DNA from: Methanoregula sp.
Lineage (GTDB): Archaea; Halobacteriota; Methanomicrobia; Methanomicrobiales; Methanospirillaceae
NCBI RefSeq assembly: GCF_028712425.1
Contig: NZ_JAQTQD010000023.1
Span: 1 to 35,024, forward strand
DNA: 35,024 bases
Reading direction: 5' to 3'
The notes beneath the pieces were generated by a model that made no database searches, was not told the DNA's origin, and worked only from the letters and a program-made list of their open reading frames with translations. The translations under genes were made by a program, and so were the position numbers. Positions 22,728 to 35,024 of the stretch are shown here, one piece after another. Position 1 is the stretch's first letter. Each line of letters begins with the position of its first letter.

Positions 22728-22748
22728 TTTTTAAAAACGATTAAAAAA
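22728..22748. terminator. bidirectional A/T terminator region
   Basis: TTTTTAAAAA and AAAAAA tracts lie in the 43-bp gap between the convergent barrel gene and the RidA gene. They offer U-runs to both strands, the usual archaeal termination signal. Confidence 0.4.
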
Positions 22749-22757
22749 GGAAAATCC

Positions 22758-23243
22758 TCACCGATTCTCTGCAACCATCTCGATCTCAACGAGCGCACCT
22801 TTGGGCAGGCCGGCAACCTGCACCGTGGAGCGTGCTGGAAAGGTATCGGTGAAATACGCACTATAGATCCGGTTGACCTCAGTAAAGTCGTTCATGCTGG
22901 TAAGATAGATCCGTGTCTGGACCACATCCGCAAAGGTAAGCCCGGATGCTGCAAGAACCGCCTTCTGGTTCTCCATGGCACGGGTCGTCTGTTCTTCAAT
23001 TCCTCCGGTCAGGTTCCCCGTTGCCGGGTCGATGCCAATCTGCCCCGAGAGCCAGACAAATCCCCCGGACCGTATGCCCTGGCTGTAGGGGCCGATGGGC
23101 TCCGGTGCCTGCCGTGAATACACGGACTGTTTTTCCGGCTGTGCTGCCCCGGGCGAAAGGAAATGCGTGTATAAGGCACCGAGCAGAATCCCGCAGACAA
23201 AGATCAGGACAAGCAGTATCAGTTTCTTGTGCAGTGCGTTCAG
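22758..23243 (-). CDS. RidA family protein with apparent N-terminal membrane anchor
   Basis: The core (residues from the GTG at 23123) is RidA: IGPYSQGIRSGGFVWLSGQIGIDP, then a helix with MENQKAVLAASG, TRIYLTSMNDF and the catalytic Arg region FPARSTVQVAGLPKGALVEIEMVA. RidA enzymes hydrolyse reactive enamines/imines to 2-ketoacids. From GTG 23123 the domain would lack its first strand. The frame continues upstream through KKLILLVLIFVCGILLGALY, a clear membrane helix, to CTG 23243, which has GGAGGG at 23251-23256 upstream at normal spacing. There is no ATG, GTG or TTG in that stretch. The protein is probably exported or membrane-tethered with a CTG start, or the start has mutated. Confidence 0.75.
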   Translation of the reverse strand: MNALHKKLILLVLIFVCGILLGALYTHFLSPGAAQPEKQSVYSRQAPEPIGPYSQGIRSGGFVWLSGQIGIDPATGNLTGGIEEQTTRAMENQKAVLAASGLTFADVVQTRIYLTSMNDFTEVNRIYSAYFTDTFPARSTVQVAGLPKGALVEIEMVAENR

Positions 23244-23319
23244 GATAAAACCCTCCGCAGGTGTTGACTCACTACAATTCAGGGTTCTGAAACTATATGT
23301 TTCTGCATTGCGGTGACGG

Positions 23320-23790
23320 GGGGATCTGTTCTACCCCCCACCCGTCCTTTAAAATAATTCACCCATACCCCCCTGCCAGGGGGTGGGGGGGTATCCGAAA
23401 GACCCCTCCCCCCCATTGGCCGGATCAGACCCCCCCTTACCATTTTCGGGTAGGCTCATGGGAGAGGTATCCGGCGGAACGACCATGGAAAATCAGGAGG
23501 ATTCCGTGTGCAATACTGCGCACATCTCAAAAATGGAGAGGGGGGTATCCGGTATACCCCCTCCCCACGTTGCGTTTCAAATCGATCAGACCTCCCCCCC
23601 ATAGGGGGAGGGGGGTATCCCGGACACCCCCCTGCCGGGATCTGAAATTGCAGGATAAAATGGGTGACGGGTAGTCTGTAACATGCACGGTCACGTCAGG
23701 AACAGTGATGAAAAAGGGGGACAAGGCGGGTGCCCGTTGGGAGGGGGGTATGCAGGAGACCCCCCCTCCGTCAGAGAAGGTTGGGCTCCG
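23320..23790. repeat. cluster of poly-G/poly-C inverted repeats
   Basis: A motif GGGGGGTATCC, 4-6 bases, then ACCCCCCTCC-like sequence recurs near 23385-23414, 23537-23566, 23604-23636 and 23741-23769. ATCAGACC followed by a C tract occurs at about 23423 and 23584. G and C runs of 5-8 bases abound. No gene is supported in 23334-23903: frames here only translate the repeat. Related sequence is found at 34080-34165. Confidence 0.65.
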
Positions 23791-23903
23791 TTAATGGCAG
23801 AGGGTCACAATAAGGGATGACCTTTGGAAGTCTGCCGTGAGTCCCTGTTTAGTCGTGAGAGGAAATCGTCTGAAATATTTGGATGCAGGTCAATGCCTGC
23901 GGT

Positions 23904-26900
23904 TTATCTTCGTCCTTTCCGGATCTTGAAATATGGCTCATCCCGGAACAATGTCGGGTTCTTCCTGCGGGTCCACCACGTTCTTGCAAAAAATCCGGTG
24001 ACACAGAGGATGATGATACCAACGATTCCCACCGCGAATAATGGAATTGCCGATCCCGTCTCCTTTGGAACTTCCGTTTCCATCGGTGCGGCCATGGTGT
24101 GAGTCACTGTTGGCCGTGCGGTATTTTTTTCAGCGGAGATCGTTCTCGTTGGTACCGGCTCCGATTCCATTACTTGTGGTGCGGTCTCCGGAATTATCGT
24201 GGCATTTTTGATCAGTGCCGTAGCAAAGTAGGAAAAGCCTTCAGTCGTTGCTTTGAACATGAATTGCCCGTCTTTCTTCCCGACGTACTCGGTGGGCAGT
24301 TTCTCCCACGCCTTGTCGTGGTACCGCAGCAACTGGACATCGCGGAAGGTCATCTCCTGTTCGTTCAGCCAGCTCTCGCTGACGGTGAACTCGATTATCC
24401 CCTGATGGATGTCGTCTTCCGTTGCGTGATAGACGTCAATCTTCTGGTACTCGTACACCTTTGCACCCGTATAGGGCAGTCCCTGTGGCAGGGAGCTGAT
24501 CTTCTCCGAGATAACGAACATATCCTTGAGAGTCCCGATGGTCTGGACGGATATTTTCGAGATATGGGTCTGGCCGGTCATCTGGTACGTGGACCAGGGG
24601 CCGGTGCTGGGATCGATGGGGGCGAGCTGGAATTTGGAAACGGACGACACCGTCGAGGACGATGTTGAAGGACCGTCATCTCCTCCGTTGACGGAGGAGC
24701 TGCCGGAGGAGGGAGTATCGGGAGTGCTGCTTGTCGTTGAGATCGAGGCCACCGAGAAGACCGAGAGGCCGTTGGGCGAGATGACGGTGAGCGTGAAGAT
24801 GCCGGCGTCGGGACCGGTCACCTCCGGTATCAGGATCTCGGTCGTGCCGTCTTCGGCCTTCCGGAGGACCGCGAGCTCGCTGACGTCGCCGTGTTCGTTC
24901 ACCCACACCTCGCTGACGGTCATGGTCAGGGTGGCAGACTCGATGATCGCATTGGCACCGCCGTCCCCGGCATTGGCGAGCTCGGCCTTCTGGATGTTTA
25001 AGGTGTAGGCGATATCATTGATCTCCTTGCCTTTCTCTTCTACGAAGAGGGTAAACGAGGTCTGGGCCGCCGGGTCCGGGTCCTTGGTGATGGTCTGCGT
25101 TATCGCCGCATCCTCACCCGGCATGGCGCTCATGTTCAGCGCGATCTGGACGGTCGGCGATCCCACGGATGCGATGGGTTCCGTAACCGTGACCGGTTCG
25201 GTGACGGCCCTGACCGAGCCGACCGTGCCGTTGACGATCCCGGCCCCGGGCTCGGGCGTACCCGCGAGGGTGATGGCCATGGATGACCAGCTGCTCGTGT
25301 TCGTGATGGTGACGATGTTGCCGCTCTGCGTGACATTGGCGGTCATGTTGATCGAGACGTTCTGGACGCCGCCCACGATCGTGGCCTTCACGTCATGGAC
25401 AATGAACTTGTTCTTCTCGACCACCGGTGCGATCACCGTGATGAACGCCGTTTTCGTTGCGGTGCTGCTGCCTGCTGCATTGGTCGCGGTCAGGCGGACC
25501 GTGTACGTCCCGTTGGTCAGGTACCTGTGGACCGGGTTCTGTTCGTCTGAGGTGATGCCGTCGCCGAAGTCCCAGGACCACGAGGTCGGGGCATTGGTGG
25601 ACCCGTCGGTGAATTTCACCGCGAACGGCATGTCGCCTACCGTCCGGTTGGCGATGAACGCCGGCACCGGCTTTACCACTCCCGGGGTAGGTGTCGGTGT
25701 TACTTCTGCGCCCACCGTGACGCAGTCCGGTATCGCGAGGAAGGAACTGCCGGCCGCGTTTGTCACGGTCAGGTTGACCGTGTAGTTGCCATTCGCCGCA
25801 TACGTGTGGACCGGGTGCTGCACTGTAGCATTCACGCTGGTGCCATCGCCGAAGTCCCAGTGCCAGCTGGTCGGGCTGCCCGTGGATTTATCCGTGAAGA
25901 CGATCGTCACCGGGGCGGTTCCGGCTTTCTTGTCCACCGAGAAGATCGCCACCGGCGCCGATCCTGCCGGACCCACCGTGATGTAATTGGTGACCCGGTG
26001 GCTGCTGCCGCCGGCCGCGTTCGTCACCGTCAGGTTGACCGCGTATGTCCCGGCGTTCAGATACACATGCTCGACATCCTGGACATCCGATGTGCTGCCG
26101 TCGCCGAAGTCCCAGAGCCAGGCGGTTGGTTCGCCCATCGTGGAATCGTCGTGGAACAGTACCGCCAGCGGGGCCGGGCCGCTCGTTACATTGGCGCTGA
26201 ACGCTGCAACCGGCGGGACTGTTGCTGCGGTCACGGTGATGTAGCCCGTGACTCTCTTACTGTTGCTCCCGGCGGAGTTGGTGGCGGTCAGGTTCACCGT
26301 ATACGTCCCTGCTGCTACGTAGGTGTGGACTGGGTTCTGCTTCGTGGCATTCGTGGCATCGTTGTCGCCGAAATCCCAAAGCCAGCCGGTTGGGGTGTTC
26401 GTGGATGTGTCCGTGAATGTCACCGTCAGCGGTGCGGTGCCCGACGCCGGCGCGGCGCTGAATGCCGCTACCGGTGTTGTGGCGGGAGTGCCGGGATACC
26501 GGACCGCGAGGGTTGCAAGACTGATCTTAAACGAGGGACCGCCATTCGTGAAGGCAAAGGTATTGAGTTCAGCCGGCTTGAGTTCCCGTGTCACATTAAA
26601 CGAATTATACTTCCAGTAATCATTGGATCCAAGGTTCAACGGGGTGAGGGAATTACCATTGAGCGTATGGGTTGCATCGGCACTGGAATGGGCAACCTCA
26701 GTTATTGAGGCTTCGGTCCACCCGGGGGCAAACGATCCTGCATCCAACGCGGTTGAACTGCTCCCGGTCATCCAGTCATTGCCGTGGTTAACAACGTATT
26801 TCACCTGGTCGGTGTCGCCATCGTTATAAGCAGCCACAAGAGTGACTGCCTTGAGCCGGCCATCATAACCACCATCCTTGCCAACCGGCGCACCAATATT

Positions 26901-29900
26901 GGATGAGGTCACGCGAATCTTCGGGTGGGCAGATGTGATCAGGTTTGTCACATCATACCATGCTTCATAGTCTGAGAAGACTTTCGTGACATGGTCGTTC
27001 AACGGGTACGCATAAGGCTGCTTGTTCGGCGAATTGGTATTCGATTCGGACTGGATATCGCAGTCTTCGGTGCCAAGCACGGTCTCGAACGTTCCGTCGC
27101 CATCGCCATCGAACTCGGTAGTGATGCGAACCGGGAGGTTATTGAGCCCTGAACCGGAATAGTCGTTCACGAAAACCTGTGCCCACGTGATATTACTGCC
27201 GGATGCAGGCAGGTCGTACGTGTAGGTGGCAGTTGTTCCATCCCATGGGGACTGGGAAAGGATGTAGAGACCACCAGAGACGGTCCCATTCCGGATCGTT
27301 GTCAGGGTATCGTGCAGTTTCCCGGCGGTAAACGCGTGCCGAATGGTCTTGTTGCTGCTCCCGTACATGGCATTCGTAACCGTGAGACGAATATCGTATG
27401 TCCCGACACGGGGGAAGGCGAGATTTGACGGACTCCTTGCCCCGGATCCAAACGCAGTCCAGGCAGATTCATTATAGTTTCGGTATTCCCACAGGTACGT
27501 GTCAACGGTTCCGGTGGATGAGTCCGTGAACGAGACCGTGACAGGCGCGAGCCCATGCGGCATCTTCCCTTCACCGTCAAGGACTACCGTGAAGTTGGCA
27601 ACCGGGGCATCTCCACCGGGGGAGCCGCCAGTAACAGCGATATATTCCGACATTACTTTAAAGTTACTGCCATCCGCATTCGTTGCGGTGAGATTCACCG
27701 TATAATTGCCGGCGTTCGCATACGTGTGGACCGGATTCTGTTTGGTGGCATTGGTGTTGTCCCCGTCGCCGAAGTCCCAGAACCAGCTGGAGGGCGTGTT
27801 GGTGGATGCGTCGGAAAACTGCGCGGTAAACGGCGCGGTGCCGGAGGTTGTGGCAACGGTGAAACCGGCAACCGGGACGGATGAGGCAGAGCCTTCGTAC
27901 TCGACTTTGAGGATGGCAGTGGCGGCCGCGAACGTCTCCCCGTCGCATTCGAAGATCGCCTCGTTGCCGGACTCTTTCACAAGGCTTGTCACTTCGCGGG
28001 AGTTATACCCGACCTGTGCTCCGCCATAATTCCAGGATTTGGTCCACTCGTTGCCATTGAAATAGAGGTTGCCCCGATCGTCCGCGTGCGGAGCGATGGT
28101 CAGGAGATCGGCGCGTTTCATCGTCGTGGTACTGATCGCCGGGCCCGTGAACGGGGCATGCGCCATGCCCGTATCTCCGCTGGTCTGGTAGAAGAGATCG
28201 AATTCGTCGTTGAGGAAGATGACCTTCCTGGTTTCGGCCGGATTCTCGTACACAACCACCAGCACCATGCCCGTGATGGGCGGCCAGGAATCCGTTACTG
28301 TCACATTGTTGCCGGAGGGATCGAACACATCCGTCACGTTATACACAACGGAACCGAAGGGATAATCGTAGCCCGAGTATCCGCCGTATCCTTTACGATC
28401 GGTATAGTGGGCGCTCACCGGCACGCGAATATTATTGAATACCGCCGCATGGGTACCATCCGCGGACACGTTCTTCATCACTTCGCTGTTGTCCCAGTTA
28501 TAGAACGAATAGAGACGGGCGTCGATGATTTTCGCACCTGTCGGCACGGGGAGGTTGGAGGAGGTCCACTGCGTTGATGCCGATTTGTAAGCCGAATTCC
28601 CGAACGAGACAATGAGGTTACCGTTCAGGTCGTACGTTCTTCGGGTGATAAGATCGCTGCCATCGGTGTAGCGCTTGGAGCCGTACCCGTTGTATACAGT
28701 CGCGACATGCGTAGAGTAGATGTTGTTTGTCTCATCTGTCTCTGTAATAAGATTATCCGGATCGCAGGTCACGGTGTAGGGTACTGATTCCCCATAGCGG
28801 TATATCGTGGGATCAGATATGTACGTAGTGACGGTATTTCCCGGGGGGATCGTGAGATTGTCGAGGGTCCACCCATAGGACACCCAGGATCCCGCGCCCG
28901 CGCTGCCATAGGTGACGTTTATCATCGTACCGTTATACACGATGCTCGCGTTGACCGGGCCGACGATTGTTCCCGGGCCGTTGTTGCGCAGGTCTATGCG
29001 GATGCCGTTGCCCAGGTTCGCGAAGGGGCTGTATACCGGGGGATTGATCAGCAGGTTGCTCTGGAGATCGCCGGCATTTGAAGATACCTGGATAAAATCG
29101 GATTTGATTATACTGTTGGATCCGTCGGGTCCGGTAACGGTGAGATTGACCGTGTAATTTCCGGCAGTGTAGTACGTATGACTTGGATTCTGCTCGTTAC
29201 TGTCCATCGTTCCATCATTATTGAAATCCCAGCTCCAGTTCGTTATTGTGCCGGTCGACGAATCAGTGAAGGTGACTGTTAATGGGACATAGCCATCAGT
29301 TAATGCAGTAGAGAAATTAGCCAGTGGAGGTGAACTGGTTACGGAAATATAATCCGTTTTTACCAGTGAACTGCTGCCTCCGGCATTTTTCACAGTCAGA
29401 TTGATAGAATATATGCCGGTATTTGTATATGCATACGTCGGATTCTGTTCTGTGCTGTCCACAATACCATCGTTGTTAAAATCCCACATCCAGACGATCG
29501 GGGAATTCGTGGATTTGTCCGTGAAATGAACCGTAAATGGTGCGGCTCCACCCGTTTCGCCCGCACTGAAATCGGCGACAGGGGGCGTTACACCCTGTGA
29601 TGTGAAGACGAGCGCCGGTTCTGTGTCTGCGAGTTGCCGAACAAATATCCAGTCATAGTATCCGGTATTCGATCCGCTTGACATCAGACTGACCGGAAGG
29701 ACGACCACAGGATTGCTCGATCCTATGGTATATGGATTGGATTCTGTCTGGATTGCAGACTGGGACTTATTCCAGAATAACTCGATCTTTTGATAGGAGT
29801 TGGGCAGGCTTCCCACACTTACACCTGTGGTAGTTCCATCGACTTTAGTATATATTGTGCCTTTTTTTGCAGCCCCAACACCAAAGAAACAACTGTTACT

Positions 29901-30599
29901 GCCGGAATATTCTCCAAATGACATTCTCTGTGTGTGCCCGTACAGGTTGGCATATGCACGTATTGAAGCGTTGTTGAGGAACTGAGCCCGGGTATCGATG
30001 ACCCTGCTTCCCTTCATGACAAGTTTGGAATCGCTGATTGTGGGGGAACCGGATATTATGCTCCACTTAGTGGTATTCAGTGAAGCTTCATCGAAGTGAT
30101 CGAAAACCGGGAACGTTGCATCGCCGTTGGATTCACTTTCGATCGTTGCATTTCCATAAAAAATATGTATGGCAACCGAATTTTCTGAACCTGAAGGGAT
30201 CCTCGGAATTTTAACCCAGAAAATTGCATTGTCCGCACCGGTTGGAGTTTCCATCCAGTAGTTCAATGCAGTCCCGTCATCCAATGCAAACCGGATATCG
30301 TTGAAGCTTGGCTGGGAGATTGTAGGCAAGAAGATTTTTCTCCCGGAATTCTCTCCCGAAACATTGTAGAGATCCAGTTCAACCTGATAATCTGTCAGTA
30401 CCGCCGGCGTTCCATTGATGAATACCGTATACTGTGAAGCAAAATTGTCGTGAGTCCACCCAGCAGCAGTAACAAAGCCGGGAACAAGGAGGAGTGACAG
30501 GAAAAATACCAGCGCAACAGGAATGGAATGACGACGGTGTTTCTGTATCTCTCTTCTATATATATTACTTATCTTCGTGCTACTTTTTTTAATTTTCAT
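23904..30599 (-). CDS. giant PKD-domain surface protein (DUF2341, CARDB, DUF3344, PGF-pre-PGF)
   Basis: A 2231-residue exported cell-surface protein. Order of parts: signal peptide (~28-46); DUF2341/lectin-like N terminus (~50-340); two PKD domains (~345-510, WMWDF and WSWDF); CARDB-like domain (~515-630); DUF3344 (~635-905); PKD (~910-990, WFWDFGDG); a diverged PKD (~1000-1090); a second DUF3344 (~1095-1365); four PKDs (~1375-1720, WLWDFGD, WLWDFGDG, WHWDFGDG, WSWDFGDG); a beta-rich part; Ser/Gly linker (~1955-1985); PGF-pre-PGF domain (~2000-2125); and a C-terminal membrane helix (~2183-2205) with a basic tail. PKD and CARDB are adhesive Ig-like folds, so a role in surface contact is likely. 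The AT-rich 5' third differs from the GC-rich remainder. Confidence 0.93.
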   Translation of the reverse strand: MKIKKSSTKISNIYRREIQKHRRHSIPVALVFFLSLLLVPGFVTAAGWTHDNFASQYTVFINGTPAVLTDYQVELDLYNVSGENSGRKIFLPTISQPSFNDIRFALDDGTALNYWMETPTGADNAIFWVKIPRIPSGSENSVAIHIFYGNATIESESNGDATFPVFDHFDEASLNTTKWSIISGSPTISDSKLVMKGSRVIDTRAQFLNNASIRAYANLYGHTQRMSFGEYSGSNSCFFGVGAAKKGTIYTKVDGTTTGVSVGSLPNSYQKIELFWNKSQSAIQTESNPYTIGSSNPVVVLPVSLMSSGSNTGYYDWIFVRQLADTEPALVFTSQGVTPPVADFSAGETGGAAPFTVHFTDKSTNSPIVWMWDFNNDGIVDSTEQNPTYAYTNTGIYSINLTVKNAGGSSSLVKTDYISVTSSPPLANFSTALTDGYVPLTVTFTDSSTGTITNWSWDFNNDGTMDSNEQNPSHTYYTAGNYTVNLTVTGPDGSNSIIKSDFIQVSSNAGDLQSNLLINPPVYSPFANLGNGIRIDLRNNGPGTIVGPVNASIVYNGTMINVTYGSAGAGSWVSYGWTLDNLTIPPGNTVTTYISDPTIYRYGESVPYTVTCDPDNLITETDETNNIYSTHVATVYNGYGSKRYTDGSDLITRRTYDLNGNLIVSFGNSAYKSASTQWTSSNLPVPTGAKIIDARLYSFYNWDNSEVMKNVSADGTHAAVFNNIRVPVSAHYTDRKGYGGYSGYDYPFGSVVYNVTDVFDPSGNNVTVTDSWPPITGMVLVVVYENPAETRKVIFLNDEFDLFYQTSGDTGMAHAPFTGPAISTTTMKRADLLTIAPHADDRGNLYFNGNEWTKSWNYGGAQVGYNSREVTSLVKESGNEAIFECDGETFAAATAILKVEYEGSASSVPVAGFTVATTSGTAPFTAQFSDASTNTPSSWFWDFGDGDNTNATKQNPVHTYANAGNYTVNLTATNADGSNFKVMSEYIAVTGGSPGGDAPVANFTVVLDGEGKMPHGLAPVTVSFTDSSTGTVDTYLWEYRNYNESAWTAFGSGARSPSNLAFPRVGTYDIRLTVTNAMYGSSNKTIRHAFTAGKLHDTLTTIRNGTVSGGLYILSQSPWDGTTATYTYDLPASGSNITWAQVFVNDYSGSGLNNLPVRITTEFDGDGDGTFETVLGTEDCDIQSESNTNSPNKQPYAYPLNDHVTKVFSDYEAWYDVTNLITSAHPKIRVTSSNIGAPVGKDGGYDGRLKAVTLVAAYNDGDTDQVKYVVNHGNDWMTGSSSTALDAGSFAPGWTEASITEVAHSSADATHTLNGNSLTPLNLGSNDYWKYNSFNVTRELKPAELNTFAFTNGGPSFKISLATLAVRYPGTPATTPVAAFSAAPASGTAPLTVTFTDTSTNTPTGWLWDFGDNDATNATKQNPVHTYVAAGTYTVNLTATNSAGSNSKRVTGYITVTAATVPPVAAFSANVTSGPAPLAVLFHDDSTMGEPTAWLWDFGDGSTSDVQDVEHVYLNAGTYAVNLTVTNAAGGSSHRVTNYITVGPAGSAPVAIFSVDKKAGTAPVTIVFTDKSTGSPTSWHWDFGDGTSVNATVQHPVHTYAANGNYTVNLTVTNAAGSSFLAIPDCVTVGAEVTPTPTPGVVKPVPAFIANRTVGDMPFAVKFTDGSTNAPTSWSWDFGDGITSDEQNPVHRYLTNGTYTVRLTATNAAGSSTATKTAFITVIAPVVEKNKFIVHDVKATIVGGVQNVSINMTANVTQSGNIVTITNTSSWSSMAITLAGTPEPGAGIVNGTVGSVRAVTEPVTVTEPIASVGSPTVQIALNMSAMPGEDAAITQTITKDPDPAAQTSFTLFVEEKGKEINDIAYTLNIQKAELANAGDGGANAIIESATLTMTVSEVWVNEHGDVSELAVLRKAEDGTTEILIPEVTGPDAGIFTLTVISPNGLSVFSVASISTTSSTPDTPSSGSSSVNGGDDGPSTSSSTVSSVSKFQLAPIDPSTGPWSTYQMTGQTHISKISVQTIGTLKDMFVISEKISSLPQGLPYTGAKVYEYQKIDVYHATEDDIHQGIIEFTVSESWLNEQEMTFRDVQLLRYHDKAWEKLPTEYVGKKDGQFMFKATTEGFSYFATALIKNATIIPETAPQVMESEPVPTRTISAEKNTARPTVTHTMAAPMETEVPKETGSAIPLFAVGIVGIIILCVTGFFARTWWTRRKNPTLFRDEPYFKIRKGRR

Positions 30600-30887
30600 A
30601 GTAATTACTACTAACTTTTTTAATTAATTTGTTAACAATTAAAACTTTTCAAATGATGACGAGCAGAAAATAATAGAATAATTTCCCTTCATTTTTCTGG
30701 GTAAAAATAAAATGATATCTGCCTCTTGAAAACAAGATATCCGCCGTTTATTCAGTTCCCGGCAATGAGGAACAGTTGTCTCTTTATAAATGAAAAGAAA
30801 TTCTTGCACGTATCATCTGCGTTTACCTGGTGGGGTGGGGATTATATCCCCTAATCCGACCAGTGTTCTTCTCGCAACGCATTCAAA
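30600..30887. other. AT-rich intergenic promoter region
   Basis: This stretch between the giant gene and the DUF3344 gene is strongly AT-rich. On the minus strand TTTTAATTG and TTAATTAAAAAAG near 30620-30650 are TATA-like and would serve the giant gene at 30599. No ORF or RNA gene is seen. Confidence 0.4.
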
Positions 30888-31886
30888 TCAGGATCCGGAT
30901 TGGATCTTCAGGAACGCAAGGGGTAGTTTGTAGAAGTTGGCTGTCCTGTTGTAAGACAGGTAATTATTCGAACCTATCACGGTATCTGAAAGTGATTTCG
31001 ATGAGAGTCCTGTCTGGTTTCCTTGGATATTGGTCAGGCCTGTGAGGGATCTTCCATTCCACGTATATACGCCATCATTGCTTGCCAGGTAATTTGCATA
31101 GATCTTTGCGGCAACAAACGAATTGTTGGATGCTCCATTAAACCAAGTCTCCCCTGGGACCTGATTATTGGCCTTGTATGTAATCGGGTCTTGCCCCTCA
31201 TTCACCCAGTAGCGGGTAACGTAGGCGCTGGAAGAGACATTGTACGCAACGACCAATGTTGCCTGTTTGATCCTGCCGTCAAATTTCGGGCTCGTATTTG
31301 TAGTAACGATGTTGACATTGACGTCACTCGTTGTGATTAAATTCGTAACATCGAATGCCGAGACGTAATCGCTGGTGTCTCTTGAAAGGCTGACGAAATA
31401 ATCATCAGGATAAAATACACTTGTCGTGTTGATACCGGAGGTATTAAAATACTCCAAATCAAGAGGCTGGTTTTGTGCTAACGTGTATGCATTATTCGAT
31501 CTCAGAGTGACTGACTCGTATCCCTTATAATTCGACAGCATATTTCCGCTGTAGACCGTGACATAGAGTCGCGCGAATTTAACATTTCCCCCGGTTGCCG
31601 GTACCGTGAAATTCGCCCAGACATCCCGGTCGATCGCACCTGAGTTATCCCATGTCGTCGTCGATGTATTGACCCAGAAATCACCGTTTACCACACCGGG
31701 CATCCCTGCGATCGTTTCGGGCGGCAGTCCCTTGTAGTAGTCATCCGCCGACACCACGCCGGCCATCGACATCACCGCAACGATCACCAGCGCCATCATG
31801 AGCGCGAGCGACCTGCGCGGCCGGGCCCTGCCCTTCAGCAGGGCGGCAAACCGGCCGTGCCTGCTTTCTGTTCGTTTCGTTTCCAT
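30888..31886 (-). CDS. secreted DUF3344 domain protein
   Basis: The 332-residue product has a Lys/Arg-rich n-region with RPRR, a hydrophobic helix (LALMMALVIVAVMSMAGVV) and a likely cleavage after VSA, then one DUF3344 domain covering nearly all of the mature part (DVWANFTVPATGGNVKFARLYVTVYSG, FDVTNLIT, KFDGRIKQATLVVAYN, YWVNEGQDP). It ends in FLKIQSGS right after the domain, with no membrane helix or sorting tail, so it should be released or bound non-covalently. The same domain occurs twice in the giant neighbour. The signal-peptide codons are GC-rich, the domain AT-rich. GGAG precedes the ATG at 31886. Confidence 0.9.
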   Translation of the reverse strand: METKRTESRHGRFAALLKGRARPRRSLALMMALVIVAVMSMAGVVSADDYYKGLPPETIAGMPGVVNGDFWVNTSTTTWDNSGAIDRDVWANFTVPATGGNVKFARLYVTVYSGNMLSNYKGYESVTLRSNNAYTLAQNQPLDLEYFNTSGINTTSVFYPDDYFVSLSRDTSDYVSAFDVTNLITTSDVNVNIVTTNTSPKFDGRIKQATLVVAYNVSSSAYVTRYWVNEGQDPITYKANNQVPGETWFNGASNNSFVAAKIYANYLASNDGVYTWNGRSLTGLTNIQGNQTGLSSKSLSDTVIGSNNYLSYNRTANFYKLPLAFLKIQSGS

Positions 31887-32347
31887 TGGTTTTACTCCAT
31901 GTCCGCGAGGCCGGCCATGGATAGGATGGTGTAATCATCAGCAGACCGGTTGCGAACAGGTATGCCTCTGCGCAGAAGCTATTAATACGTTTCTGCTTAT
32001 TCGTAACACTTTATTTTACAATTTTTCTATTTATGATACTGAGCCGGGGATAATGGTATAAATAGTACATTATACGGATCCTCCTATACGATAGACGAAT
32101 TTGTATAGAATCTGCGGTATCTTCCGGAGGGGATTTTTCCAGCGGGCGGGGGCCTGTATTTAGGCTACGGCCCGGTGAAGCGAAGGACCGGGATCTCTCA
32201 TTGGCAGGGAAAACACAGAGCCGGGATCACGGGTGGGTGGCGCGTACAAACCGCAGGTCCGGACCGGGAAAATTCCGGACGGGCGTGGGCAGGATCAGGG
32301 TATTGATGTGCGGGCCGGCACCAGGTAACCGGTTTGGCCGGCATGCC
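31887..32347. other. intergenic region upstream of the DUF3344 gene
   Basis: On the minus strand TATTAATAG near 31985 and CATAAATAG near 32030 are TATA-like candidates for the DUF3344 gene. The part 32120-32345 is GC-rich; short frames on both strands there resemble no family and have no good start signals. Confidence 0.35.
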
Positions 32348-32365
32348 ATAACGAAGGTTCGTTAT
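32348..32365. promoter_or_regulatory. 18-bp perfect palindrome
   Basis: ATAACGAAGGTTCGTTAT is self-complementary over all 18 bases. It lies between the 3' end of the toxin gene and the DUF3344 promoter region. It may be an operator or, in RNA, a hairpin downstream of the toxin-antitoxin operon. Confidence 0.4.
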
Positions 32366-32397
32366 CCCGGTTTCCGTATGCAACGGGTATATGCTTT

Positions 32398-32406
32398 AAA
32401 AAAAAA
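32398..32406 (-). terminator. poly-T tract after the toxin-antitoxin operon
   Basis: Nine consecutive A on the plus strand give a T9 run on the minus strand, ~135 nt after the toxin stop. Such runs terminate archaeal RNA polymerase. Confidence 0.4.
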
Positions 32407-32539
32407 GTTCAGGCGCTTCGCGTGATCGTGGCAGTATTTTACCCGTACGGAGCTTGAAAAAACCAAAACCAGGATCCTGAAAATTCCCCGATGGCCACCA
32501 TCGTTGAAATCTCTCCCTAAACGCTGCACGGAAAGAGGA

Positions 32540-33052
32540 TTATTCCGGATCGGGATATTCCTCAACAGACGCCAGTGCTCTGCAATATAATTGATCGTCA
32601 ATATAAAAACCCATCCGTTCCCGGAGGGCATTGAGTTCGAACCGGAGCGAATCGATCGTTCCCTCCCGTTTTGCCCTCATGAGGATACCGATCACCCCAG
32701 TCTTACGAAGGCCAAACGTGGCGGCTACCCGACGCGCATCGGTTTCATCCAGGAGAATAAGATCTGCATTCAGCTCCAGGGCAAGCACTATTGCTTCTGC
32801 CTCCCCACGGTGCAGATCCTGACACAGCAGATTCACCAGATGGTTGTTATCAGGTTTCTTCCGGGAGATCCATCCCTGGCCACATGCCTCCCGGACTTCA
32901 GCCGCTCCCGGTAATATATCCCCCGAGGTGGCAATCTCATCCCATACCGACGGAGGGATAATGATCTCGCTGAACATTTCATGCAGGAGACCCCACCTGC
33001 CAATCCCCGCGAGATTGATCAGGGGAGACGAGTCACTGATCACAGCGGGCAT
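32540..33052 (-). CDS. PIN-domain toxin, DUF3368 family
   Basis: The ~170-residue protein has the PIN nuclease layout: the first acidic residue in AVISDSSPLINLA, Glu in HRGEAEAIVLALE and Asp in LILLDETDARR, which together bind the metal ion. Such toxins cut RNA when not held by their antitoxin. The ATG at 33052 begins one residue before the first strand; ATG 33064 would add four residues. The gene overlaps the end of the upstream UPF0175 gene by 20 bp, the usual type II arrangement with the antitoxin first. Confidence 0.9.
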   Translation of the reverse strand: MPAVISDSSPLINLAGIGRWGLLHEMFSEIIIPPSVWDEIATSGDILPGAAEVREACGQGWISRKKPDNNHLVNLLCQDLHRGEAEAIVLALELNADLILLDETDARRVAATFGLRKTGVIGILMRAKREGTIDSLRFELNALRERMGFYIDDQLYCRALASVEEYPDPE

Positions 33053-33293
33053 ATTCAATATCATCTTCGAGATCCTGGTCCGTGTAATGCCGGGGTATTT
33101 TTCGTGCCCTTAACAGGGTATTGAATTGCCAGCGATCCACTCCTGCAATCTGGCAGGCATTACCGGAAGACACTGCACCTCTCTGGTACAATGCCAGCGC
33201 CAGTTCTTTTTTAAGTTCGTACTCCAGATCATCAGGTGGAAAGCGGATCCCATGTAAGACATGTTCCGGAATTTTAAGACAGATATCTCCCAT
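33033..33293 (-). CDS. UPF0175 family antitoxin
   Basis: The 86-residue protein matches UPF0175: an N-terminal strand (DICLKIPEHVL), then ELKKELALALYQRGAVSSGNACQIAGVDRWQFNTLL, a helix-turn-helix that recognises DNA, and a C-terminal tail (YTDQDLEDDIEYA) that would cover the toxin. It probably represses its own operon. A TATA-like TTTATTA lies near 33346-33352 on the minus strand, ~55 nt upstream. Confidence 0.88.
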   Translation of the reverse strand: MGDICLKIPEHVLHGIRFPPDDLEYELKKELALALYQRGAVSSGNACQIAGVDRWQFNTLLRARKIPRHYTDQDLEDDIEYARCDQ

Positions 33294-33492
33294 AGATTCA
33301 CCGATCTGGAAATACTTTTCCTGATGATAGGATATGCCCCGTGCTTAGTAATAAATCCTAGTATGGGTGGAATCTGTCGGGCAGCCTGAGACAACGGATG
33401 CACGCGGATGTCAGGCCCGGAATCATGAGCCGGACGGGTATGCGGCAGGGGAATTTGTCAGGACACAGTACAACAATACAAAAAAGAAACCA

Positions 33493-33639
33493 TCAAGAAT
33501 CATCCGCCGAAACCACGCCGGCGAACGACATCACCGCAACGATCACCAGCGCCATCATGAGCGCGAGCGACCTGCGCGGCCGGGCTTGGAGCAGGTTCGG
33601 GAACCTCCCGGGCCTGCTTTCATTACGAGTTGTCTGCAT
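33493..33639 (-). pseudogene. orphan signal-peptide copy of the DUF3344 gene
   Basis: An ATG at 33639 opens 48 codons ending at TGA 33493-33495. The product is a signal peptide nearly identical to that of the DUF3344 protein: RPRRSLALMMALVIVAVMS, then FAGVVSADD, and stops two residues after the cleavage site. At DNA level ~85 bp (33500-33586) match 31741-31827 with only about three differences, including an identical run of over 50 bp. No DUF3344 sequence follows. It is a remnant left by deletion or recombination, or a parked cassette. Confidence 0.75.
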
Positions 33640-33797
33640 TGTAGTTTCACCACTTCCCGCAGAGGGTTTCTTTTTGCTGATGTCAAATTCCGCTTATTAC
33701 AAAACTCCAATACTTCACGATTTTTTCATGGACTTAAGAAACATGTAAGACATAACCAGATAGCGGGCGCCGGATTTGGTTATTCTGCGAAAATTTT

Positions 33798-33954
33798 CAA
33801 TCGCGATCATGATGTGTTAGTTATGGAGGCTACAATCGGATAATTATCCTACAAAATGCATGTACATGCTACAAAATTTTTGGCTCTCCTACGTGATCGC
33901 CCGGCTATTGCAATCAAGTGTTGCTTAAAAAAATTCGAGCAGGGTATGATGGGG
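33798..33954. repeat. outlying copies of the ~25-bp repeat family
   Basis: CAATCGCGATCATGATG (33799 on) matches the CGATCACGATCACGATT segment at 1890-1910. CAATCAAGTGTTGCTT (33911) followed 25 bp later by CGAGCAGGGTATGATG matches the array units at 1550-1966. No gene is seen in 33640-34165. Confidence 0.45.
33838..33877. promoter_or_regulatory. tandem 12-bp palindromes with flanking direct repeats
   Basis: GGATAATTATCC (33838-33849) and GCATGTACATGC (33858-33869) are both perfect palindromes, 8 bp apart. The second is flanked by direct repeats TACAAAAT. This looks like a protein-binding site, but no start codon is close; the orphan signal peptide starts 200 bp to the left. Confidence 0.4.
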
Positions 33955-34079
33955 TAATTTTTTTCCGGATATCGATTGCGATGGTAAGAGTGGTATAACT
34001 TTTCATTCAGATCTTTAGCAGGTAGCGTATATTGCCAGGATTCATGGAGGAATAATCAGGAAAGTTCTGAGGCTAGAGG

Positions 34080-34165
34080 GGACTGTCCCGAATCCCCCCA
34101 CCACCTTGTGATGAAAATCGATCAGACCCCCCCCCTCCGTGTTTTTTAGGAAAGGGGTTACCCCC
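34080..34165. repeat. poly-C repeat copy at right end of the island
   Basis: AATCCCCCCACC, then ATCGATCAGACC followed by a C tract, then GGGGTTACCCCCCTACC. The ATCGATCAGACC core matches 23581-23592, 10.5 kb away. It directly abuts the 3' end of the minus-strand gene ending at 34166. Confidence 0.55.
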
Positions 34166-34978
34166 CTACCGTACTACTACGTCCGCTTTCGGATCAAACG
34201 GGTTCTTCCGCATCGCGAGGCTGAATAAGTACGGGTAATGGTTCTTCAGGTACTCCATATACTTCAGCCACTCGGGCACGAGCCGGGAATAGACCCGCTC
34301 CATATCTCCTTCAAGGTGGGCGATATCGGCTGGAGGGAGGGTCGAGAGGTCGTCGCGTGCTTTCAGCTCCTCGGTCAGGTGGGTCACTGCCAGGATCAGA
34401 TCCGTGAAGGTCTCGTGCTCGAAAACCGTCGGATTCTCGATGATGCGAAGGAGGAAGTCCTCGTTGCCGTCAAGGAATGTGCGGAGCGATTCCCGGTCAA
34501 TCCCCGCCGGATCAACTTTACACTTCCACACGTCAAGGGATGCCTGCGCCTGGAAGAACCGGTCTGCTGTCCAGTCGGCGGGGCTGACCTCCAGCTCCTT
34601 CTGCATGGGGATGGTGCAGGGATCGGCTTTCGAGAGCCGGGAGAGAAGCGGTGTGCCGACGCGGGAGAAGAAGATCCCGATCACCATGTTCAGCTTCTCC
34701 ATGCGCTGCTGCTTCTCCCGGGATTCCAGCAGCTGGTCGATGATCAGCGTGACACAGAGAACCTCGACCGGTATGAAGACCAGGTCGCCGACAAAGAAGA
34801 TGCCAAGGTGGTGCAGGTCGTGGAATGCCAGGTAGTGGACGGTCATCAGGAGCAGCGTCAGGGTGACAAGTGCAAGCCCCACGAGCACCTTCCAGCGGGT
34901 GTATTCCTTCATGCCGGAGATATCCGGCACGATACGTGATAATGAATCCGGTACCGGTGACCGTCTGGTCAGGGCCAC
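34166..34978 (-). CDS. two-helix membrane protein of unknown function
   Basis: The 270-residue product (from GTG 34978) has two hydrophobic helices (about residues 29-48 and 56-80), a charged coiled-coil stretch (DQLLESREKQQRMEKLN) and a long cytoplasmic helical domain (residues ~95-260) with LTDLILAVTHLTEELKARDDL. No known family is recognised; the layout resembles small archaeal membrane proteins with a soluble helical tail. A TATA-like element lies only ~15-20 nt upstream of the GTG, so the transcript may start inside it and ATG 34912 (MKEYTRWKVL) may be the true start, giving 248 residues. Confidence 0.8.
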   Translation of the reverse strand: MALTRRSPVPDSLSRIVPDISGMKEYTRWKVLVGLALVTLTLLLMTVHYLAFHDLHHLGIFFVGDLVFIPVEVLCVTLIIDQLLESREKQQRMEKLNMVIGIFFSRVGTPLLSRLSKADPCTIPMQKELEVSPADWTADRFFQAQASLDVWKCKVDPAGIDRESLRTFLDGNEDFLLRIIENPTVFEHETFTDLILAVTHLTEELKARDDLSTLPPADIAHLEGDMERVYSRLVPEWLKYMEYLKNHYPYLFSLAMRKNPFDPKADVVVR

Positions 34979-34990
34979 AGGAAAAGACCG

Positions 34991-34998
34991 GATAAAAG
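34991..34998 (-). promoter_or_regulatory. TATA box for the last gene
   Basis: CCTTTTATC on the minus strand. Its distance predicts a transcript start near 34967, downstream of GTG 34978 and upstream of ATG 34912. Confidence 0.4.
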
Positions 34999-35024
34999 GA
35001 GAGAAAATGTGATGGATGTTATGC

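What the first reader, a model, noticed from the sequence alone, without database searches (positions are those of the whole stretch)
23320..23790. Poly-G/poly-C palindromic repeat family
Four copies of GGGGGGTATCC...ACCCCCCTCC alternate with ATCAGACC plus C tract. The runs could form quadruplex or hairpin structures, and the homopolymers are prone to slippage, so the region next to the giant surface gene could vary in length between cells.
Basis: partly seen in the sequence, partly recalled or inferred. Interest (0 to 1): 0.5.

Follow-up and report, generated by a model that had tools for sequence, protein, structure and literature searches.

The report
Archaeal mosaic intergenic palindrome element
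The G- and C-runs are not a loose slippery tract but one copy of a roughly 450-base, five-palindrome DNA element that sits between genes at about ten places in this methane-making archaeon and also in relatives; it is built like the mosaic palindromic repeats of bacteria, but what spreads it and what it does remain open.

Summary
The repeats are real, but they are one ordered unit. Window 23317-23765 (449 bp) holds five 23-bp dyads (GGGGGGTNT-N5-ANACCCCCC) spaced 69/154/70/133, with C-tract half-sites and conserved blocks between them. Its core recurs at about ten places in the host genome (Methanoregula) and in 18 of 39 genomes of the genus; of 199 genomes sampled in the order, only one outside the genus matched, weakly. 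None of 61 loci examined has a called gene across it. Some copies share place and orientation between species. An internal segment keeps its length (57-60 nt in 59 of 71 matches) while its sequence drifts. I found no target-site duplication, no excess RNA folding and no quadruplex motif in the window copy; Y1 transposase genes are absent from the host. Slippage is not supported. The locus did change otherwise: against a close relative, about 10.36 kb with the giant surface gene lies inserted at the last palindrome's C-tract, with a second element fragment at its far end. Reading: a BIME-like archaeal mosaic element acting as DNA, probably a protein-binding scaffold and recombination site. Protein and function are inferred, not shown.

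The parts
23317..23765 (+). whole composite element, 449 bp, orientation P1 to P5
   Evidence: local alignment to L128 ends at 23765
23317..23339 (.). dyad P1 (degenerate, score 15 of 18)
23365..23373 (+). half-site Q1 (ATACCCCCC)
   Evidence: inverted pairs I6, I9
23386..23408 (.). dyad P2
23423..23436 (+). half-site Q2 GATCAGACCCCCCC, beside the conserved block GGCCGGATCAGACC
23451..23507 (+). variable segment V: length constrained, sequence much less so
23506..23519 (+). conserved block GTGTGCAATACTGC
23540..23562 (.). dyad P3
23584..23597 (+). half-site Q3 GATCAGACCTCCCC
23610..23632 (.). dyad P4
23743..23765 (.). dyad P5; its 3' C-tract is the left junction of the 10.36-kb insertion
23766..34125 (.). 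segment absent at the orthologous place in L128, present here between element and gene X; carries the giant PKD/DUF3344 gene (23904-30599 -), a second DUF3344 gene (30888-31886 -) and a DUF3368 gene (32540-33064 -)
34074..34136 (+). fragment of a second element (P3-Q3 like) at the right end of the inserted segment; its C-tract runs into the sequence that follows P5 in L128

Best explanation
A BIME-like, genus-level mosaic of intergenic palindromes. It spread to many sites in the past (how is unknown), and several copies are now inherited in place. It most likely works as double-stranded DNA: the five dyads (half-site GGGGGGTNT) at fixed distances look like binding sites for one dimeric DNA-binding protein that assembles a nucleoprotein complex in gene gaps, and the repeated G/C half-sites also serve as exchange points for recombination. 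SHOWN: the unit, its copies, its intergenic placement, its regular spacings, shared places between species, and a 10.36-kb structural difference with a junction at a half-site. INFERRED: the protein, the complex, and that recombination between half-sites brought the insert in.
For: The layout P1-69-P2-155-P3-69-P4-133-P5 recurs. Where a dyad scored, P1-P2 is 67-70 in 40 of 40, P2-P3 151-157 in 51 of 59 and 144-145 in 8, P3-P4 66-70 in 26 of 27, P4-P5 132-135 in 16 of 18 (each dyad was sought within 8, 16, 8 and 30 bp of its expected place, and P1 failed to score in 19 of the 59, P4 in 32). No called gene spans the middle of any of 61 loci. V keeps 57-60 nt in 59 of 71 matches while identity there is 36% (25% shuffled) against 67-69% in the blocks. 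Dyad position 8 does not pair significantly with 16, although positions 7, 9, 15 and 17 are near-fixed, as in half-site recognition. Shared places in the same orientation: beside cbf5 and tRNA-Ser in six genomes and beside ridA in three. In the five diverged ortholog pairs blocks v V: 0.81 v 0.46, 0.76 v 0.61, 0.87 v 0.74, 0.78 v 0.56, 0.80 v 0.79. The insertion meets P5's C-tract with a 7-bp overlap in L128, and the far end carries an element fragment ending in the same kind of C-tract.
Against: No binding protein was sought or found. Regular spacing can also come from common descent of copies, although the drift in V argues against that alone. Conserved blocks could be kept alike by gene conversion. 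In the four pairs of near-identical genomes blocks do not clearly exceed V (0.97 v 1.00, 0.96 v 0.96, 0.98 v 0.95, 0.88 v 0.79), and pooled over nine pairs blocks do not exceed spacers (0.869 v 0.885). Single places can be empty: G002, nearest by Cbf5 (91%), lacks it beside cbf5, and 21 of 39 genus genomes, some incomplete, have no match. The breakpoint link is weak outside hand-picked pairs: 1 of 9 breaks in a 260-kb comparison fell in an element. The 10.36-kb junction lies at a repeat in a 56-contig assembly and could be a misjoin.
Confidence: 0.5

Rival explanations
1. Non-autonomous mobile element (MITE or REPIN-like) moved by a transposase, with hairpins as its ends and no role for the host.
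For: Many copies at non-orthologous places, palindromic ends, intergenic only, tandem and truncated forms. Some pairs within a genome are close: 93% in G002, 90% in G036. G037, with 12 matches, has one weak Y1 protein.
Against: No target-site duplication beyond chance in 18 full copies (p=0.50). Y1 family in 5 of 39 genomes, none in G000, G002 or G025. In the host genome the best pair is 84%, median 64%, over P2-P3 (8 copies). Shared old places and the length constraint on V. DDE transposases were not searched.
Confidence: 0.25
2. A multi-copy structured non-coding RNA gene.
For: Conserved sequence blocks, strong hairpins and a fixed order of the parts.
Against: No Rfam family at gathering score in the window; weak hits are miRNA models far below cut-off. 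RNAalifold on 22 sequences found 22 pairs, none with a two-sided change, covariation term 0.12. V does not fold better than shuffles (mean z -0.09 on + and -0.19 on -, 69 sequences).
Confidence: 0.1
3. Transcription terminator or gene-end insulator: hairpins P1 and P3 followed by T-runs stop transcription in one direction.
For: T4 or longer within 25 nt after P1 in 27 of 40 and P3 in 38 of 59, against P2 2 of 59 and P4 4 of 27. Convergent neighbours in 18 of 47 loci with both neighbours called; orthologous loci counted separately.
Against: 11 of those 47 loci lie between divergent genes. In the window neither neighbour is transcribed on the + strand into the element. Five dyads with regular spacing are more than a terminator needs.
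Confidence: 0.1
4. Slippage-prone homopolymer tract that varies in length.
For: Twelve G/C runs of at least 6 in the element.
Against: The longest run is 7 or 8 in 57 of 61 elements from many genomes.
Confidence: 0.05

Closest known systems
BIMEs (bacterial interspersed mosaic elements) and REP palindromes
   Same: Intergenic mosaics of short palindromes at regular distances; reported in bacteria as binding sites for several proteins (PMC2817692, start of abstract in listings; passages)
   Different: Archaeal; G6/C6 dyads; about 10-20 large units rather than more than 100 small ones; regular five-dyad layout; no Y1 transposase in the host or in two other element-rich genomes
REPIN/RAYT system
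   Same: Dispersed palindrome units in extragenic space
   Different: No Y1 protein in G000, G002 and G025; unit about 450 bp
BOX elements of Streptococcus (recalled, not looked up)
   Same: Modular intergenic repeat
   Different: Sequence and modules not compared here
Sulfolobus MITEs (recalled; PMC3718332 seen only in a listing)
   Same: Small non-coding dispersed repeats in archaea
   Different: No target-site duplication found here; DDE partners not searched

Membership tests
BIME/REP | palindromic units in extragenic DNA | tested here: met
   no called gene across any of 61 loci; dyads
BIME/REP | regular spacing of units with conserved sequence between them | tested here: met
BIME/REP | alternating orientation of units (PMC2817692 abstract) | tested here: inconclusive
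   the dyads are near-symmetric, so orientation is ill defined
BIME/REP | high copy number (more than 100 per genome, PMC2817692 abstract) | tested here: not met
   13 matches in G000 (ten places), 28 in G025
BIME/REP | binding by gyrase, IHF or polymerase I (recalled) | not testable with these tools
   needs a bench test
REPIN/RAYT | cognate Y1 (RAYT) transposase in the genome | tested here: not met
   PF01797 in 5 of 39 genomes, none in G000, G002, G025; one in G037, which has 12 matches
MITE | target-site duplication | tested here: not met
   18 full copies, mean 1.61 v 1.59 for shuffled flanks, p=0.50
MITE | recent near-identical copies | tested here: inconclusive
   host best pair 84%; G002 best pair 93%
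MITE | autonomous partner with the same ends | not tested
   only the Y1 family was searched
structured ncRNA | compensatory base changes | tested here: not met
   (pair 8/16: 62 v 53.9 expected, p=0.087)
structured ncRNA | expression | not testable with these tools
   no transcript data
G-quadruplex locus | four G-runs on one strand, conserved | tested here: not met
   none in the window element; 22 of 61 copies on +, 24 on -, 20 on neither

The most novel reading that the evidence does not exclude
A spacing-constrained, multi-dyad archaeal DNA scaffold, read by an unknown protein, whose half-sites double as entry points where large accessory segments (here one carrying a 2,231-residue surface protein gene) are exchanged between cells or loci.
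Probability: 0.2. Interest if true: 0.7.

Novelty: new variant of a known kind. Interest (0 to 1): 0.45.

Why it matters
Mosaic palindromic repeats with protein-binding roles are known from bacteria (PMC2817692, abstract in listing). An archaeal counterpart with a more regular architecture and no evident mobiliser would give a clean case for asking how such repeats spread and what they do. It also makes a practical point: three host contigs end or begin in such a unit, and one unit here marks a place where a large accessory segment differs between relatives.

Tried and rejected
RNA structure: by eye I saw variable hairpins in V; shuffles showed no excess, so I dropped it. Covariation of dyad positions 8 and 16: the table (95 dyads) gave no sign of it; with 161 dyads there was a small excess, not significant (62 v 53.9, p=0.087). 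Synteny breakpoints: of the 11 ortholog pairs several alignments end at a dyad arm (L193/L207 at +306, L200/L206 at +301, L185/L196 at -13 and +319, L188/L210 at +216, L140/L173 at P1, L142/L174 at P5), but many were picked because only one flank matched, and an alignment can also end through divergence; the unselected 260-kb comparison gave 1 of 9 breaks in an element and a break at 1 of 6 elements, so I do not claim enrichment. Helical phasing: two length classes differ by about one or two turns (V 48 v 58; P4-P5 112 v 133), but few independent events lie behind them. Block v spacer identity pooled over nine pairs fails to favour the blocks; at least two spacers there hold the tRNA gene (inferred from place). 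Plasmids, phages (449-bp query) and viral contigs (one 18-base pattern): no match. Window tRNA and Rfam at gathering score: none. In one search the script's own tRNA listing came out empty for all 30 loci (a parsing fault); searches replaced it for 13 loci. Literature: no paper on this repeat showed in the listings of seven searches; one search listed 10 of 11 and only 12 of 7,187 papers, mostly unrelated.

Full report
What is there. It has five dyads of 23 bp at 23317, 23386, 23540, 23610 and 23743, C-tract half-sites at 23365, 23423 and 23584, and conserved blocks between them. With a pattern taken from the element, 9 matches (both strands) face a mean of 0.01 in 100 shuffles.

Whose genome. 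In a scan with a neighbouring protein the first 33 of 61 rows bear Methanoregula or other Methanomicrobiales names, save one 'Euryarchaeota archaeon'. The window is a whole contig, C22, of a 2.67-Mb genome in 56 contigs. G025, of the same genus, is the Methanoregula sp. assembly OWC_0058, since its contig C1 has the length of NZ_JAJRCG010000001.1 (315,949). That G002 is M. formicica is recalled.

Copies. A strict pattern gives 8 matches on five contigs of G000, the window's included, and 0 for the reversed control. In the genus 13 of 39 genomes match, G025 with 57 (symmetric sites count on both strands), control 0 in all 39; three of the 13 (G010, G012, G024) have no match to the model below and are probably chance. 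A sequence-only model of P2-P3 (R1, built from 22 copies) finds 18 of 39 genus genomes at E up to 0.001 (10 of 23 among the more complete): 13 matches in G000, 11 in G002, 28 in G025. The 13 in G000 are ten places; two of these are fragments at contig ends. Over the order, with stricter filters, 14 of 199 genomes match; the only one outside the genus, G170, has two partial weak matches. No match in the plasmid and phage collections, nor for one pattern in viral contigs.

Layout. In the 59 of 61 loci with a scored P2, spacings cluster: P1-P2 67-70 (40 of 40 scored), P2-P3 151-157 (51) or 144-145 (8), P3-P4 66-70 (26 of 27), P4-P5 132-135 (16 of 18), each dyad being sought near its expected place. 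In G036/G037-type copies P4 and P5 are often not recognisable. Truncated and tandem forms occur. Segment V is 57-60 nt in 59 of 71 model matches (68 loci, one place present twice as L132 and L200) and 48-49 in 9, with mean identity 36% between same-length copies (25% when shuffled) against 67-69% in the blocks on each side.

Place. I put 61 loci through a simple codon-model gene call; other fetched loci with dyads (for example L108, L110, L113, L114, L122, L130, L141) were not. In none of the 61 does a called gene span the middle of the element; in five a neighbour overlaps the nominal bounds by 1 to 82 bp. Where both neighbours were called (47 loci), 18 are convergent, 11 divergent and 18 co-directional.

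The cbf5 place. cbf5 was found in 35 of 39 genomes and 30 of these loci were fetched. Strong matches (E 1e-12 or better) lie downstream of cbf5 in six: L213, L216, L220, L221, L225, L227; L224 is weaker (5e-8), and L238 and L239 weaker still (4e-5, 3e-4). tRNA-Ser(GGA) lies between cbf5 and the element in all six, and a DNA methyltransferase gene follows in five; in the sixth, L221, the fetched stretch ends too early, but the longer stretch of the same genome (L183) shows it. G002, nearest by Cbf5 (91%), has tRNA and methyltransferase but no element there (L214), and L232, L233 and L234 have a short spacer.

The ridA place. The window and L128 (G002) align at 81% from 22743 to 23765, the last base of P5. 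The next alignment joins window 34126-35024 to L128 2409-3304 (90.5% over 899 columns), while the first ended at L128 2415: a 7-bp overlap there, a jump of 10,360 bp here (L128 read on its reverse strand). L109 (G025) has the ridA-element-gene X order without the jump. The extra segment carries the giant PKD/DUF3344 gene, a second DUF3344 gene and a DUF3368 gene. At its far end, 34074-34136 is a P3-Q3-like fragment, nearest to L128's P3-Q3 (78% over 63 columns; the window's own comes close, 76%), and its C-tract leads into the sequence that follows P5 in L128. This is what an exchange between two C-tract half-sites would leave. A misjoin in assembly at these tracts is not excluded.

Constraint. 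Block identity exceeds V identity in L115/L178, L184/L199, L133/L183 and L123/L139 and equals it in L192/L183; in the four pairs from the near-identical G036 and G037 it is mixed; pooled over the nine pairs blocks do not exceed spacers. Within the host genome 8 copies are 64% alike at the median over P2-P3, best 84%; in G002 the best pair is 93%.

What it is not. No sign of slippage: longest run 7 or 8 in 57 of 61 elements. No quadruplex motif in the window copy. No Rfam family and no significant base-pair covariation. No Y1 transposase in G000, G002 or G025, though G037, with 12 matches, has a weak one. No target-site duplication.

Papers. PMC3733652, PMC2817692, PMC6006769 and PMC2686161 were seen as passages found by terms and as listings; in the first the terms archaea, Methano and euryarch occur only in the references, and PMC6006769 says that subclass 1.1 is the only Y1 subclass observed in Archaea. 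Others are named from listings.

Verdict. A genus-level archaeal family of mosaic intergenic palindromes, most like BIMEs in how it is built; I found no description of it in the searches named. Function inferred.

Noticed in passing
L070 / L143 (G000 contig C4, last bases): The contig ends inside an element with a sequencing-adapter-like tail (AGATCGGAAGAGC, recognised from recall); contigs C10 and C45 also begin within an element.
   Followed up: no
window 23766-34125: A 10.36-kb segment with two DUF3344 genes, one a 2,231-aa PKD surface protein, absent at the orthologous place in L128 and L109.
   Followed up: partly
L236, L238-L240, cbf5 spacer: A related but different family of G/C hairpins with TACTCATTTTTGAG-type boxes fills the same spacer in other genomes of the genus.
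   Followed up: no
L215 (G024), cbf5 spacer: Spacer of similar length full of other short G/C hairpins (GGTAGCTACC type); that genome has no R1 match.
   Followed up: no
P1 and P3 in 59 loci: T-runs often follow P1 and P3 but rarely P2 and P4, a terminator-like asymmetry.
   Followed up: partly
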